Positions 2,284-12,915 of a stretch of DNA of 31,220 nucleotides are shown here, in pieces. The DNA comes from a virus. How positions within the stretch are numbered: position 1 is the stretch's first letter; every line of letters starts with the position of its first letter. The position numbers were made by a program, and so were the translations under genes. The notes under the pieces are model-generated. The model was given only the letters and a program-made list of their open reading frames with translations. It made no database searches and was not told the DNA's origin. Where the stretch lies: positions 1-31,220 of IMG/VR virus record IMGVR_UViG_3300012922_000310, one strand, 5' to 3'.

Positions 2284-2493
2284 ATGAGTGTCGATGCTGA
2301 CGAATTCGAGGCGGACGCGAGGCGCGAGATCGTGACGGTGCGGGTCGCCGCGAAGGCACTGCTCGACGCGCTCGACTTGCCGCCCACGATCGCAGGCACG
2401 CGAGCGCGTCTGCTCGTGATCGCGGACAGGAGTCTCGACACGGACGCGGTGCTCGACGCGGCCGAGGCGCTTCGCAAGGCTCTCGAGATATGA
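2284..2493 (+). CDS. Small helical hypothetical protein
   Basis: 69 residues, ATG at 2284 preceded by GGGAGG (2273-2278). The protein is acidic at its N-terminus and strongly helical in composition (Ala, Leu, Asp, Arg), without cysteines or membrane segments. The start of the following pentapeptide-repeat gene overlaps its stop (ATGA). No family recognised. Confidence 0.65.
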   Translation: MSVDADEFEADARREIVTVRVAAKALLDALDLPPTIAGTRARLLVIADRSLDTDAVLDAAEALRKALEI

Positions 2494-3098
2494 TCCTCGT
2501 CACCATCTACCGCAGTGACCTCGAACGTGCCGTGGCCTGCCATGGCGGGCTCGAACTCTATGACGCTATCGCTGCCATGCAGCCCGACACCGACCGGTTG
2601 CGCGAACGCCGCATCAAGGTGCGCTGGTCACGCTTGCACCGCGTTTGGTTAGCGACGCAGTATCCAGGTTTCTACTCGTGGCTATATGAGCAAGGGTTCG
2701 CGCCCGAAGTCTCCCTCCGCGGCGCGGACCTCGCCGGCGCGGACCTCCGCGGCGCGAACCTCGGCCGCGTGGACCTCGACGGCGCGTACCTCGGCGGCGC
2801 GTACCTCGACGGCGCGAACCTCCGCGGCGCGGACCTCGGCGGCGCGGACCTCGGCGGCGCGGACCTCGGCGGCGCGTACCTCGACGGCGCGAACCTCGGC
2901 GGCGCGAACCTCCGCGGCGCGGACCTCCGCCGCGCGGACCTCCGCCGCGCGAACCTCCGCGGCGCGGACCTCGCCGGCGCGGACCTCGGCCGCGCGGACC
3001 TCGGCCGCGCGGACCTCGGCGGCGCGTACCTCGACGGCGCGAACCTCGGCGAGTGGGAGCGTGGTGAGGATGGCTATGCGCGAAAGAGGCAACGCTGA
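2490..3098 (+). CDS. Pentapeptide-repeat protein
   Basis: 202 residues. An N-terminal domain of about 75 residues (mixed alpha/beta, Trp and Tyr near 60-68) precedes 22 tandem pentapeptides of the form L-x-G/R-A-D/N/Y at residues 76-185 and a short charged tail. The family folds into a right-handed quadrilateral beta-helix; some members mimic DNA and bind gyrase (MfpA, Qnr), while most have unknown targets. The central residue is invariably Leu and the i-2 residue is nearly always Ala, as the fold requires. The repeats are unusually uniform, also at DNA level, suggesting recent expansion. A role in protecting or modulating host topoisomerase would be speculation. Confidence 0.9.
   Translation: MILVTIYRSDLERAVACHGGLELYDAIAAMQPDTDRLRERRIKVRWSRLHRVWLATQYPGFYSWLYEQGFAPEVSLRGADLAGADLRGANLGRVDLDGAYLGGAYLDGANLRGADLGGADLGGADLGGAYLDGANLGGANLRGADLRRADLRRANLRGADLAGADLGRADLGRADLGGAYLDGANLGEWERGEDGYARKRQR
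2715..3050 (+). repeat. 15-bp tandem repeat array encoding pentapeptides
   Basis: About 22 imperfect copies of a 15-base unit of the type GGCGCGGACCTCGGC, each encoding one pentapeptide. Because 15 is a multiple of three, several other frames on both strands stay open here and give low-complexity Arg- or Ala-rich products. Variation between units is confined to a few bases. Confidence 0.9.
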
Positions 3099-8489: not shown

Positions 8490-8722
8490 GGCTGAAACTA
8501 TCCGACGCGCTGGAGTGGCTCGCACGCACCGAAGGCCTGTACCTGTATGGGCAGCCTGGCGAGGTAGTCGATACCGTAACTTGGGCCGTCGGCAGCAACA
8601 GCGCGTCCGGTGAGGTTGAGGAGGTGTACGCGCAGGGCGAGACGGTGCTGAAAGCCATCATCGCCGCGCGCAAGAGGATGTGCGTGACGTTCCTCGACAC
8701 GAAGAAGGGCGGCCTCGTATGA
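8486..8722 (+). CDS. Small hypothetical protein
   Basis: 78 residues from GTG at 8486 (GTGA overlap with the methyltransferase stop). It begins with a predicted helix (L-S-D-A-L-E-W-L-A), followed by beta-rich segments and a terminal helix with basic residues. No motif recognised. The next start at 8719 overlaps its stop. Confidence 0.6.
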   Translation: MRLKLSDALEWLARTEGLYLYGQPGEVVDTVTWAVGSNSASGEVEEVYAQGETVLKAIIAARKRMCVTFLDTKKGGLV

Positions 8723-9552
8723 CCATCTCGATTGCCCTCGCGGTACCGCATACAGACTGGATACCCGAGCGCGTCGAGTCGTGCGCGCGTCTCACGTCCG
8801 CACTCGGACTGAACGCGTACGGCGCGCCGGTGACCGACATTCCGGTCACCGAGTCGCGGCTGTTCTCCGATCGCGAATCCAACCGAGTTTGGTCGCAAAA
8901 ACTCTTCCGCTGGGCGCTAGACACCGGCGCGTCGCATTTATTGCAGATCCAAGACGACGCCATCGTCGCGCCCCGCTTCTGGCCCATCCTGCGCGCCATG
9001 ATCGAGGCTCAGCCTGACCGCATCATCGGTCTCGAAGCGACGCACCCGCTCATTCCGGTGCAGCACCGTGCGGGGCGTCGGTGGTATCGGGACCAATGGC
9101 TCATCGGGGTTGGGTACGTGTTCCCATGCGCTCAACTAGACCATTACGTCGATTGGTGCGCGATCAATCCCGAGCGCGTCGATAAAACAAACGAGGACTC
9201 CCTCATCTCAGAGTGGTCGCACGAGACGGGCCGGTATATCTGGCACCCGATCCCCACGATCATCGATCACGACATCGGCGTCCCATCGACGTACGGCAAC
9301 GACGCGCACCACGAATTCTCGATGTACCGTCGCCCGCTCGTCACGTGGCGCGACGTCGACACTCCCGCGCTGGAGGACCCCGCATACTGGCGCGTGACGC
9401 AAGAGGGCGCCCCTCTCCTGCCCGGGCCCGGCTCGCAACTCTGCTGGTATTGCAGCGTCGGCGACGCGAAACTGACGAGCGCGAAGACGGGTGCGCGACT
9501 CTGCAAACAGTGCCTAGCTGAGATGCTCGGCCACATGCTCGGGAGGCTCTGA
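8719..9552 (+). CDS. Putative glycosyltransferase with C-terminal zinc ribbon
   Basis: 277 residues, ATGA overlap at 8719. It resembles GT-A fold transferases: L-L-Q-I-Q-D-D-A-I-V (near residues 74-83) would supply the metal/nucleotide-sugar aspartates, and a conserved-looking H-P-I-P...D-H-D-I-G-V-P-S block follows near 187-203, as in several phage and capsule transferases. The last 40 residues add C-W-Y-C and C-K-Q-C pairs, a zinc ribbon not normal for this fold, so it appears to be a fusion. Acceptor unknown. Confidence 0.65.
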   Translation: MTISIALAVPHTDWIPERVESCARLTSALGLNAYGAPVTDIPVTESRLFSDRESNRVWSQKLFRWALDTGASHLLQIQDDAIVAPRFWPILRAMIEAQPDRIIGLEATHPLIPVQHRAGRRWYRDQWLIGVGYVFPCAQLDHYVDWCAINPERVDKTNEDSLISEWSHETGRYIWHPIPTIIDHDIGVPSTYGNDAHHEFSMYRRPLVTWRDVDTPALEDPAYWRVTQEGAPLLPGPGSQLCWYCSVGDAKLTSAKTGARLCKQCLAEMLGHMLGRL

Positions 9553-9970: not shown

Positions 9971-10179
9971 TGCGAATCGTGCTGAAGGGGTGGCTGGTCT
10001 CTGTCGAAACGCGACGTGTGGATCACCGAGCGCCGTCGCAACGGATTGCAGTGATTCAGGCGACACCGAACGGCAATAACGTCGAGCCGACGCGGGTGGA
10101 GGTGGAGGTCCCGGACACGTTTGAGTGGTGCGAATTCCAGGATCGACGCCTGCGCGTGGTCATCGAGGCCGACGAGTGA
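9970..10179 (+). CDS. Small beta-rich hypothetical protein
   Basis: 69 residues from ATG at 9970; GTG at 9967 is an alternative and would add one residue. The protein alternates polar and hydrophobic residues, predicting a small beta sheet, and ends in an acidic tail. The next gene starts on GTG within its stop region. Function unknown. Confidence 0.55.
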   Translation: MRIVLKGWLVSVETRRVDHRAPSQRIAVIQATPNGNNVEPTRVEVEVPDTFEWCEFQDRRLRVVIEADE

Positions 10180-10925
10180 ACGCCTCCCGCATCCTCGTCG
10201 CGTCGCCCGTCGACGGCAGTCCCGAGACCGCATCCGTCTCGCTCGGCTACTCGTCTGGCATTCGCGCCCTCGAGCGGGCGAACGCGAACGTCCTGCCCTA
10301 CTCGCTCTGTTTCAGCGACGACCTCGCGCGCGCCCGCTCACGATGCGCGTCGATCGCCCTCGAGCGGCCCGGGTGGGACTGGCTTCTTTGGTGGGACGAC
10401 GACGTCGTGTGCAAAGACGTCTCGATCGTACAGCGCATGGTCGACGCGGCGGGCCGTCACGGGCTCGAGATGATCGGGGCGCCGTACCCGCGGAAACGCA
10501 TTCAGGCGTCGTTCCCATACAAGCCGTTGCGGACGCAACTCGAAGCGGGGCGCATTGAGTGGCGCGACGAGGTGCAACTCGTCGAGTGCATCGGGTTCGG
10601 GTTCGTCCTGACGTCGCGTTCGTGTCTCTCGCTCATGACGCAGAGATGGAACAAAGAGTGGTTCACCGACGTGCGCGAGGGGCAGCCACCACGCGAAACG
10701 ATTGCCCTGTTCAAGCAGATTCACACCGACGAATCTTCGGTCCTCGGTCCAAACGGGCTGCCGATGCGGTTTCGCGACCTACTGAGCGAGGACTATTCGT
10801 TCTGTTGGCGATGGCGCGAGATGGGCGGCTCGATCGGGATGTACGTGGGCGAAGGCTCGCCACTGATGCACGTCGGTGCGCACGGGTACACGGGGCAGGT
10901 TACGAATCAGGAGGGGACGTTCTAA
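10176..10925 (+). CDS. Putative GT-A (family 2-like) glycosyltransferase
   Basis: 249 residues from GTG at 10176. Residues 70-78 read L-L-W-W-D-D-D-V-V, the D-x-D site that binds metal and nucleotide sugar. The I-G-A-P-Y-P-R-K-R segment and, near the C-terminus, L-S-E-D-Y-S-F-C-W-R-W-R-E followed by G-x-I and a final H-x-G fit GT2-like enzymes often found in phages. It is the third putative transferase in 4 kb. The GroES-like gene starts on its stop codon (TAATG). Confidence 0.75.
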   Translation: MNASRILVASPVDGSPETASVSLGYSSGIRALERANANVLPYSLCFSDDLARARSRCASIALERPGWDWLLWWDDDVVCKDVSIVQRMVDAAGRHGLEMIGAPYPRKRIQASFPYKPLRTQLEAGRIEWRDEVQLVECIGFGFVLTSRSCLSLMTQRWNKEWFTDVREGQPPRETIALFKQIHTDESSVLGPNGLPMRFRDLLSEDYSFCWRWREMGGSIGMYVGEGSPLMHVGAHGYTGQVTNQEGTF

Positions 10926-11350
10926 TGGGTACCGACGACACGCTCGAATACCGCACGGACCTCTGGACATCGGGGAGCGGCGCGCAGTTCGTAGCCGCTC
11001 GTCTAGGCTTCCGTCCGATGCGAGGCCAGGTCGTCGTCCGCGAGATCAAAGACGAGTACGCAACGATCCGCGGCGTGTACCGACTCGGTGGCAACCCGCG
11101 CGAGGTGAAGATTCACCGAGGCACCGTGCTCGCCATAGGAGCGCCGATGCTCACGGCGAAGGGCGCCGAAGTGCCGCACGGGTTCTCGGGCGGCGACGTC
11201 GTGCTATACTCGTTCCAGCATAACGAGAGGGCGTTTACGTATCCGTGGTCGGACGACAAGCCCGCGACGTGGATACCGCAATGGGCGGTGAGCGCGGTGC
11301 TCGAGGAGGTCGGTGGTTCGAATCCACCCGGCGGCAAAAGGCTGCCGTAG
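10925..11350 (+). CDS. GroES-like co-chaperonin
   Basis: 141 residues from ATG at 10925. The middle fits the Cpn10 beta-barrel: R-G-Q-V-V-V-R-E-I near 37-45, H-R-G-T-V-L-A-I-G-A-P (about 67-77) and S-G-G-D-V-V-L-Y-S (about 91-99), then W-I-P-Q-x-A-V-S-A-V-L-E. The mobile loop is short. Phage co-chaperonins (T4 gp31 is the model) help GroEL fold capsid protein, and its place just before terminase and head genes fits. The last 13 codons, after E-E-V, coincide with the tRNA-like T arm and acceptor hairpin and look added to the usual C-terminus. Confidence 0.7.
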   Translation: MGTDDTLEYRTDLWTSGSGAQFVAARLGFRPMRGQVVVREIKDEYATIRGVYRLGGNPREVKIHRGTVLAIGAPMLTAKGAEVPHGFSGGDVVLYSFQHNERAFTYPWSDDKPATWIPQWAVSAVLEEVGGSNPPGGKRLP

Positions 11351-11365
11351 CTCAGTGGCAGAGCT
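11307..11365 (+). ncRNA. Candidate circularly permuted tRNA (3' half before 5' half)
   Basis: Read in order: variable-loop-like AGGTC (11307-11311); T stem GGTGG, loop TTCGAAT, stem CCACC (11312-11328); acceptor 3' strand CGGCGGC (11329-11335); discriminator-like A (11336); linker AAAG (11337-11340); acceptor 5' strand GCTGCCG (11341-11347); TA at positions 8-9; D arm GCTC-AGTGGCA-GAGC (11350-11364). The acceptor strands pair 7 of 7 with one G-T. All invariant D- and T-loop bases are present. No standard 5-bp, 7-base anticodon arm follows or precedes, so amino-acid identity is unknown and the RNA may need splicing or be a relic. It overlaps the 3' end of the GroES-like gene. Confidence 0.5.
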
Positions 11366-11562
11366 AGGTAGGCGACTGCCGAATAAGAAGCGCTGACAGC
11401 CCGGAAAGACGGGCACTGCGCCAACGCCCTCTCGAGGATGCGGCGACCACGCGCCGTGATACGGACTGACCGACGGCAGCGGCACCGTGAGCGGGTGACT
11501 TCGACCACTCGCCGAATCCTCACCCGTCGGGCCTTCGGGCCGCTCGTGCTACCGTCTGGCGA
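11366..11562 (+). other. Structured non-coding stretch before terminase
   Basis: No credible gene. Several hairpins can be drawn: GGTAG-GCGA-CTGCC with a GNRA loop (11367-11380), GCCCG-GAAAGA-CGGGC (11399-11414), GCGGGTG/CACTCGC (11491-11512) and GGCC-TTCG-GGCC with a UUCG loop (11530-11541). CTACC at 11549-11553 could pair with GGTAG at 11367-11371, closing the whole stretch. This could be the rest of the tRNA-like transcript, an intron, an untranslated leader of the terminase gene, or a packaging site. No group I core could be fitted by eye. Confidence 0.4.
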
Positions 11563-12915
11563 GTGAACTTCGCAGCGCTCTCCCTTCTCGCGCTCGTTCC
11601 TGCGCTCTCCGCGGAGCTTCGCGAACCGTTTCACCTGGCGGATTGGTGCGCGCTAATCGAGCGCGCGGACACGGAGCCCGTCCGCGGGCTCTGCGACATT
11701 CCGATTCGACACTACAAAACGGAGACGACGCTTCACGGGATCGTGTGGCTACTCCTCCGCGACCCGACCCGTCGAATTATCTTCATGACGCACTCTCTCG
11801 AAGCCGCGCAGGCTCGAGGGAAACGACTTCGTAAGCTCGCGACCGAGGCAGGCGTAGGCCCCGCGCGCGGGTTCGACACGATCACGAATTGGCAGAACGA
11901 CCGCGGCGGTGGCGTCGTCGTGATGTCCGCCGACCAGTCGAAACTCGGCTACGACTGCCACGCGCTCGTCTGCGACGATCCGATCGACGAGCACGGCAGC
12001 GACGACGCGCGGGTGCGCGAGGCCGTCGACCAGGCGATCGCGCACTACACGGCGCGCTGTTTCCGTCGCGGCAAGCCGGGGCCCGTGCTCTTACTCATGT
12101 CGCGCTGGCACCCAGACGACCCCATCGGGCGCCGCCTGCTTCGCACGGCGCGTGAGTGGATACACATCCACCATCCGGCGATCATCGACGAGGGGCTGCC
12201 GAGCGAGAAGGCGTTCGCGCCGAATGTGTGGGACCTGCCCGAACTCCGCGCGATGCGAGCGGAGCTCAAAGAGGCCGACCCGAGCGAGCGCAAATGGTGG
12301 GCGCAACTCATGGGCGAGCCGACGCCGATGGGTTCCGACCTGTTCGGCCCCGCGACGTACTACCGCACGTTCCCCGACTGGGGCGGGTACCGTCGCGCAC
12401 GCGGCATCGACATGGCCTACGCAGTCGGCGACGGGAACGACTGGTTCGCGCGCGTCGAGGGGCGAATCTACGGGAGGAAGCTCTATCTCGTCGACGTGGT
12501 GCGGCACAAACTCGACGCGTATCAGATCGAGTCGACGCTGCGGCAGGACGACGAGACGTACGGGCGCGCGCCGGCGTACTCGTACATGAGCGGGCCCGAG
12601 ATCGGAACGGCGCGACTGCTCCGCTCGCGCGGCCTGCAGATCGTTCCGATGCACGCGCGCTACAACAAACTCGTACGCGCGCAGCGCACAATCCGGCGGT
12701 GGAATGACCATGACATCCTCGTGCCTGAGGAGACGATGGCGCCGTGGGTGAAGCCGTTCCTACACCGGCTCGGGATGTTCCGCGGCCACGAAAAAGACCC
12801 GGATGACGAGGGCGATGCGCTCGTCTCGCTCGCGGACGGGTCGATGGGCGGCACCGCCGCGGGGTCGGCGCCGTCCTCGAAGGGGCGCGCGTACCCGGGG
12901 ATGAACGTCGTCTAA
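11563..12915 (+). CDS. terL: Terminase large subunit
   Basis: 450 residues from GTG at 11563. It is the ATP-driven DNA-packaging motor and nuclease. Walker A is a deviant P-I-R-H-Y-K-T-E-T (47-55), Walker B is A-L-V-C-D-D (134-139), and the coupling region reads L-L-L-M-S-R-W-H-P-D-D-P-I-G near 175-190. The C-terminal RNase H-like nuclease begins at G-I-D283-M-A-Y and includes a late D-D-E-G-D418 acidic site. Length and motifs fit the Terminase_6 type used by many Mu-like and other phages. No terminase small subunit is recognised next to it. Confidence 0.92.
   Translation: MNFAALSLLALVPALSAELREPFHLADWCALIERADTEPVRGLCDIPIRHYKTETTLHGIVWLLLRDPTRRIIFMTHSLEAAQARGKRLRKLATEAGVGPARGFDTITNWQNDRGGGVVVMSADQSKLGYDCHALVCDDPIDEHGSDDARVREAVDQAIAHYTARCFRRGKPGPVLLLMSRWHPDDPIGRRLLRTAREWIHIHHPAIIDEGLPSEKAFAPNVWDLPELRAMRAELKEADPSERKWWAQLMGEPTPMGSDLFGPATYYRTFPDWGGYRRARGIDMAYAVGDGNDWFARVEGRIYGRKLYLVDVVRHKLDAYQIESTLRQDDETYGRAPAYSYMSGPEIGTARLLRSRGLQIVPMHARYNKLVRAQRTIRRWNDHDILVPEETMAPWVKPFLHRLGMFRGHEKDPDDEGDALVSLADGSMGGTAAGSAPSSKGRAYPGMNVV

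What the first reader, a model, noticed from the sequence alone, without database searches (positions are those of the whole stretch)
11307..11365. Candidate circularly permuted phage tRNA at the GroES-like / terminase junction
The sequence contains the 3' half of a tRNA (AGGTC variable loop, consensus T arm, acceptor strand) directly followed, after AAAAG, by the 5' half (acceptor strand, TA at 8-9, consensus D arm). The two acceptor strands pair over all 7 positions, so they belong to one molecule rather than to two unrelated tRNAs. Permuted tRNAs are established in some algae and archaea; I do not know of an established one in a phage. The anticodon arm is not found in standard form, so it may be interrupted, remodelled or lost.
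Basis: partly seen in the sequence, partly recalled or inferred. Interest (0 to 1): 0.85.

Follow-up and report, generated by a model that had tools for sequence, protein, structure and literature searches.

The report
Phage Y-RNA-type permuted tRNA mimic

Summary
Window 11307-11365 (+) holds T arm, 3' acceptor strand, 5-nt loop, 5' acceptor strand and D arm, with all 16 base pairs formed. Rfam's best match covers exactly these coordinates: YrlA (RF02553), a bacterial Y RNA whose tRNA-like module has this permuted order. The score (31.1 bits) is below the gathering score (69), because only the module matches. A decayed pair of tandem tRNAs is unlikely: 1 of 871 real tandem pairs gives 7/7 acceptor pairing. 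Such modules are common in phages: I collected about 110. Of 44 phage records carrying the best-defined subtype, 40 encode Ro60/Rsr (TROVE), against 2 of 47 control phage contigs. That subtype keeps a full anticodon arm inside a covarying Y stem, which Rfam misses at its gathering score. The window's copy is an outlier: no anticodon arm, no Rsr-type Y-stem motif, no TROVE gene in this 31-kb fragment. It overlaps the 3' end of a GroES-like gene whose relatives lack it, and is bracketed by a candidate 12-bp stem and a GNRA hairpin. Best reading: a Y-RNA-type tRNA mimic, not a gene for a decoding tRNA. Whether it still works is open.

The parts
11307..11365 (+). Permuted tRNA-like module (variable-loop remnant, T arm, acceptor stem closed by a 5-nt loop, D arm)
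   Evidence: Sequence; Rfam RF02553 match at these coordinates; model R1 match 11301-11364, 48.4 bits
11312..11328 (+). T arm, 5 bp, loop TTCGAAT
   Evidence: alignment
11329..11347 (+). Acceptor-like stem CGGCGGC/GCTGCCG (7/7 pairs) closed by AAAAG 11336-11340
   Evidence: 1 of 871 tandem-tRNA control pairs reaches 7/7
11348..11364 (+). U8-A9 and D arm (GCTC-AGTGGCA-GAGC)
   Evidence: alignment
11367..11380 (+). 5-bp hairpin with GCGA (GNRA) tetraloop just after the D arm, in the place of an anticodon arm; no other collected module shows this layout
   Evidence: folding; comparison with 109 other modules
11292..11303 (+). Candidate Y-type stem, 5' strand (GCGCGGTGCTCG); lies inside the conserved 3' end of the GroES-like coding sequence
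   Evidence: flank shuffles reach 12 bp in 9/1000 (wide) or 3/1000 (narrow)
11410..11421 (+). Candidate Y-type stem, 3' strand (CGGGCACTGCGC)
11283..11287 (+). Possible outer helix GGGCG, pairing with 11425-11429 CGCCC across a small internal loop
   Evidence: pairing depends on the stretch folded, weak evidence
11425..11429 (+). 3' strand of the possible outer helix
10925..11350 (+). GroES-like (Cpn10) ORF; its last residues are read from the RNA module and its TAG stop is U8-A9-G10 of the module
   Evidence: Pfam PF00166 4.3e-6; PHROG 3188; homology to relatives ends at residue 125-128
11563..12915 (+). Terminase large subunit, downstream neighbour
   Evidence: PHROG 38, 6.9e-40

Best explanation
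The element is a tRNA-mimicking RNA module of the bacterial Y RNA (YrlA) kind, carried by a phage in the 3' end of the GroES-like gene just ahead of the terminase gene. It works as a tRNA look-alike: T arm stacked on a closed acceptor stem, with the D loop docking on the T loop, so that tRNA-handling proteins recognise it although it has no free CCA end and no anticodon. In known YrlA RNAs this head is modified by tRNA enzymes and binds PNPase, while a long basal stem holds the Ro60-like ring protein Rsr. By analogy the 12-bp stem 11292-11303/11410-11421 would be the basal stem here. Shown: sequence, pairing, family match, linkage of related phage modules to Rsr genes. Inferred: homology by descent for this copy, expression, protein binding. 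Not shown: an Rsr-binding stem or any Rsr gene for this phage; this copy may be a remodelled or 5'-truncated Y RNA.
For: Best family match of the window is YrlA at exactly the claimed span. All pairs and tertiary-contact letters are kept. Related permuted modules are widespread in phages and covary: 93.2% of cells paired, covariation score 0.663 against 0.190 in shuffles, slid versions 34-51% paired. TROVE/Rsr occurs in 40 of 44 phage records with the anticodon-armed subtype, in 11 of 19 records of a first mixed set, in 10 of 10 cellular genomes with a strict motif, but in 2 of 47 control phage contigs. What YrlA does: PMC8394870, PMC7790460. Flanking 12-bp stem reached by 3-9 of 1000 shuffles.
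Against: The score stays below Rfam's gathering score, and neither Rfam YrlA nor model R1 extends into a Y stem. No TROVE or DUF2828 gene in the window record, nor TROVE in three capsid relatives, though all may be fragments. None of the 28 terminase relatives has the module near its terminase. The 5' strand of the proposed stem is GroES coding sequence; relatives without the module conserve that part of the protein. No promoter or terminator match nearby. The T arm does not pair in some predicted ensembles.
Confidence: 0.7

Rival explanations
1. Relic: a Y-RNA module that moved into the GroES-terminase gap, lost its 5' half (Y-stem strand and anticodon arm) and is no longer a working RNA; its flanking stem is chance.
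For: GroES homology runs up to about 11308, where the module begins; no Rsr gene; flanks match neither YrlA nor R1; relatives lack it; another perfect 12-nt complement (11224-11235/11423-11434) exists nearby, so such stems can arise by chance here.
Against: All 16 module pairs and both loops are at consensus; an old neutral relic should have lost some. The 12-bp stem is rarer than in shuffles.
Confidence: 0.3
2. Gene for a true permuted tRNA: transcript cut in the AAAAG loop by RNase P and RNase Z, new ends joined, giving a decoding tRNA.
For: Complete acceptor, T and D arms in permuted order. In many related phage modules a full anticodon arm with U33 is present, and rotation makes 51/51 of them ARAGORN tRNAs against 2/51 unrotated (they were selected for having that arm, and mismatched halves also pass in 25/51).
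Against: No anticodon arm here. Related modules sit in a Y stem and travel with Rsr, while the RtcB ligase is present in only 5 of 37 of those records.
Confidence: 0.04
3. Remnant of two ordinary tandem tRNA genes.
For: YrlA-type models also ring on tandem tRNAs in ordinary genomes.
Against: 7/7 acceptor complementarity occurs in 1 of 871 tandem pairs; no outer tRNA halves on either side.
Confidence: 0.03
4. 3'-end structural element of the GroES mRNA (RNA stability or processing signal) that uses a tRNA-like fold but no Rsr.
For: The module overlaps the GroES stop codon; GNRA hairpin and stem are unlike the other modules.
Against: No direct evidence; not present in relatives.
Confidence: 0.15

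Closest known systems
YrlA, bacterial Y RNA (Rfam RF02553); effector module of the Rsr-Y RNA-PNPase complex (RYPER)
   Same: Same permuted order T arm - closed acceptor stem - D arm; match at the exact coordinates; length of the bracketed region (147 nt) within the 90-150 nt quoted in PMC8394870
   Different: Score under gathering; no recognisable Rsr-binding stem; GNRA hairpin after the D arm; no Rsr gene in the fragment
Phage Rsr-linked Y RNAs with anticodon arm
   Same: Same permuted module; phage-borne
   Different: They carry GTTACTTCG plus a 5-bp/7-nt anticodon arm and a covarying inner helix next to a GYGNAG-type internal loop; the window has none of these
Mycobacterium phage MrMagoo permuted module (NC_053515.1 57865-57927)
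   Same: Among the best phage BLAST matches (81%), permuted module, no TROVE in the record
   Different: A short stem sits directly in the anticodon-stem position; flanked by a tRNA gene and a tmRNA
Circularly permuted tRNA genes of algae and archaea
   Same: Order of halves
   Different: From general knowledge, those contain the anticodon arm and yield ligated mature tRNAs; neither is shown here
Permuted tmRNA (RF04321)
   Same: 3' tRNA half precedes 5' half
   Different: No Rfam match at this locus up to E 10; a full tRNA-like D stem is present here

Membership tests
YrlA (RF02553) | Permuted tRNA-like module with consensus T and D arms and closed acceptor stem | tested here: met
YrlA (RF02553) | Score at or above the curated gathering score | tested here: not met
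   31.1 of 69 bits; known Rsr-linked phage elements also fall below it
YrlA (RF02553) | Basal Y stem formed by the 5' and 3' ends | tested here: inconclusive
   12-bp stem, 3-9 of 1000 shuffles, but not aligned to YrlA or R1 flanks and its 5' strand is GroES coding sequence
YrlA (RF02553) | Rsr/Ro60 (TROVE) partner gene | tested here: inconclusive
   absent from the 31-kb record, which may be a fragment; host unknown
YrlA (RF02553) | Binding to Rsr and PNPase, modification by TruB/DusA | not testable with these tools
   needs biochemistry
Phage anticodon-armed Y RNA (model R1) | Module match | tested here: met
   48.4 bits, positions 35-109
Phage anticodon-armed Y RNA (model R1) | Anticodon arm and conserved inner helix and flanks | tested here: not met
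   match ends at the module; no TTACTTCG, no arm
Circularly permuted tRNA | Complete anticodon arm | tested here: not met
Circularly permuted tRNA | Processed, CCA-bearing or circular RNA product | not testable with these tools
   no transcriptome available
Ordinary tRNA | ARAGORN or Rfam tRNA hit | tested here: not met

The most novel reading that the evidence does not exclude
A stand-alone phage tRNA decoy: a Y-RNA head that has dropped its Rsr-binding stem and swapped the anticodon arm for a GNRA-capped hairpin, so that it occupies tRNA-handling enzymes (or host tRNA-cleaving defences) while being immune to anticodon nucleases. In the wider set, anticodon-armed phage Y RNAs would be nuclease baits or sensors of tRNA damage rather than plain PNPase tethers.
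Probability: 0.1. Interest if true: 0.8.

Novelty: new variant of a known kind. Interest (0 to 1): 0.5.

Why it matters
It shows that a 'permuted tRNA' spotted by eye in a phage can be the signature of a Y RNA, and that tRNA finders and Rfam's current YrlA model at its gathering score both miss the phage members tested or call them tRNAs. The tight link of permuted modules to Ro60/Rsr genes in phages, many with intact and varied anticodon loops, makes a testable question of what phage Ro60 particles do with tRNA-like heads: direct RNA decay, bait anticodon nucleases, or sense damaged tRNA.

Tried and rejected
Tandem tRNA relic (disfavoured by the acceptor-pairing control). Permuted tmRNA (no match). 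Permuted group I intron around a tRNA: considered, no Rfam group I match up to E 10. Rotation plus ARAGORN on the window gives many inconsistent anticodons, so uninformative. Pattern scans for close copies of the window module found none in viral contigs; a single-protein terminase search found none; a terminase-alignment scan found 28 viral relatives and none in genome contigs. Searching for D arm + GNRA found 11 contigs but none with the window's layout. Listeria phage P100 was examined because a P100-like phage has an Rsr-like virion protein and abundant unannotated RNAs near its tRNAs that its authors suggest may be Y RNAs (PMC12282133); model R1 found no clear element there and the candidate protein is DUF2828/DUF7788, not PF05731. 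Chen et al. 2014, the main YrlA survey, and the 2020 review could not be read here, so the novelty of the anticodon-armed subtype is not settled.

Full report
The observation. AGGTC is followed by a perfect T arm, the acceptor strand CGGCGGC, AAAAG, the acceptor strand GCTGCCG, TA and a perfect D arm; all 7 acceptor pairs form, one of them G-U. ARAGORN sees no tRNA. Rfam finds nothing at gathering thresholds, but in E-value mode the top match is YrlA, RF02553, at exactly 11307-11365. YrlA is a bacterial Y RNA made of a long stem and a head resembling the D, T and acceptor arms of tRNA. That head is modified by DusA and TruB and binds PNPase, while the stem binds the Ro60-like ring Rsr (PMC8394870; PMC7790460). 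The order T arm, closed acceptor, D arm is thus the normal layout of this RNA.

More than chance. YrlA models also respond to tandem tRNAs, so the weak score alone proves little. I therefore measured the acceptor argument: among 871 neighbouring same-strand tRNA pairs in about 300 phage loci, one shows 7/7 complementarity between the 3' strand of the first and the 5' strand of the second.

Related sequences. BLAST in phages led to unannotated permuted modules in Caulobacter phage CcrColossus, beside a TROVE gene, and in other phages. Pattern scans of IMG/VR and a structural filter gave about 110 permuted modules. The best-defined subtype reads, 5' to 3': outer helix, GYGNAG-type internal loop, inner helix, TTAC, a 5-bp/7-nt anticodon arm with U33, AGGTC, T arm, acceptor, loop, acceptor, TA, D arm, then the other halves of the helices. 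In 42 aligned members 93.2% of cells pair and the covariation score is 0.663 against 0.190 in shuffles; all eight inner-helix pairs and all seven acceptor pairs show double-sided changes. The acceptor and anticodon arm were selection criteria, so their pairing is partly built in; the inner helix was not selected for. 40 of 44 phage records with this subtype encode TROVE, against 2 of 47 control tRNA-bearing phage contigs. A strict motif finds 10 cellular genomes, all with TROVE. RtcB is present in only 5 of 37 phage records, so circularisation by a phage RtcB is not general. Rfam does not call the tested members YrlA at gathering level and calls some of them tRNA.

The window copy compared. 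Model R1, built from the 42, scores the window 48.4 bits over the module and nothing beyond. There is no anticodon arm and no conserved flank. Instead a 12-bp stem brackets the region (11292-11303/11410-11421; shuffles reach it in 3-9 of 1000), and a GGTAG-GCGA-CTGCC hairpin follows the D arm, unlike the other modules. The 5' strand of the stem lies in the GroES-like gene, whose homology to relatives ends around residue 128 (about 11308), where the module starts; the ORF then reads through the module and stops at its U8-A9-G10. None of 28 terminase relatives has the module near its terminase. No TROVE or DUF2828 gene is in the record, which may be a fragment.

Mechanism. Shown: the fold is encoded, is unlikely to be chance, and belongs to the Y-RNA head type. 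Inferred from YrlA: it presents a tRNA elbow and closed acceptor to tRNA enzymes or PNPase. Open: whether it is expressed, whether its stem binds an Rsr from phage or host, or whether it is a recent, 5'-truncated insertion on its way to decay. I put about 0.7 on the Y-RNA-type tRNA mimic as identity, with about 0.3 that it is no longer functional; these two overlap in origin.

Novelty. The kind is known and has been reported in mycobacteriophages (PMC12282133 citing Chen et al. 2014). New here as far as the readable literature shows: the unusual layout of this copy, and the broad Rsr-linked phage class with complete anticodon arms. The key survey could not be read, so that second claim needs checking.

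Noticed in passing
L190-L299, L132, L137, L141, L142 and others (alignment A2); CcrColossus L127:2991-3970: Large class of phage, and some bacterial, Y-RNA-like elements that contain a complete permuted tRNA with anticodon arm (anticodons GTT and TGT commonest, 22 kinds in 51 elements), tightly linked to TROVE/Rsr genes; annotated as tRNA or not at all.
   Followed up: yes
window 11465-11507 (minus strand): A degenerate inverted match to the module (GCTGCCGT.G.TCAGT and T-arm-like letters in register); shuffles reach the score in 7-9 of 500, so only suggestive of an old inverted second copy.
   Followed up: partly
window 10925-11350: The GroES-like protein carries about 13 extra residues read from the tRNA-like module, and uses its U8-A9-G10 as stop codon.
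   Followed up: yes
L002:70-413 and 1013-1263 (Mycobacterium phage MrMagoo): tmRNA, a permuted tRNA-like module and a GOLLD-like RNA within 1.3 kb, mostly unannotated (GOLLD match is cut off by the end of the locus and below gathering).
   Followed up: no
L066:5026-5101: Permuted module with a CAT anticodon arm but no TROVE gene in its 58-kb record; a candidate true permuted tRNA or Rsr-free decoy.
   Followed up: no
window 2490-3098: Pentapeptide-repeat protein (PF00805, 1.7e-42) in a phage.
   Followed up: no
window 8680-9552 and 10125-10925: A glucosyltransferase-like ORF (PHROG 854, 5.2e-8) and an ORF of PHROG 1574, unknown function (7.6e-8), next to the packaging genes.
   Followed up: no
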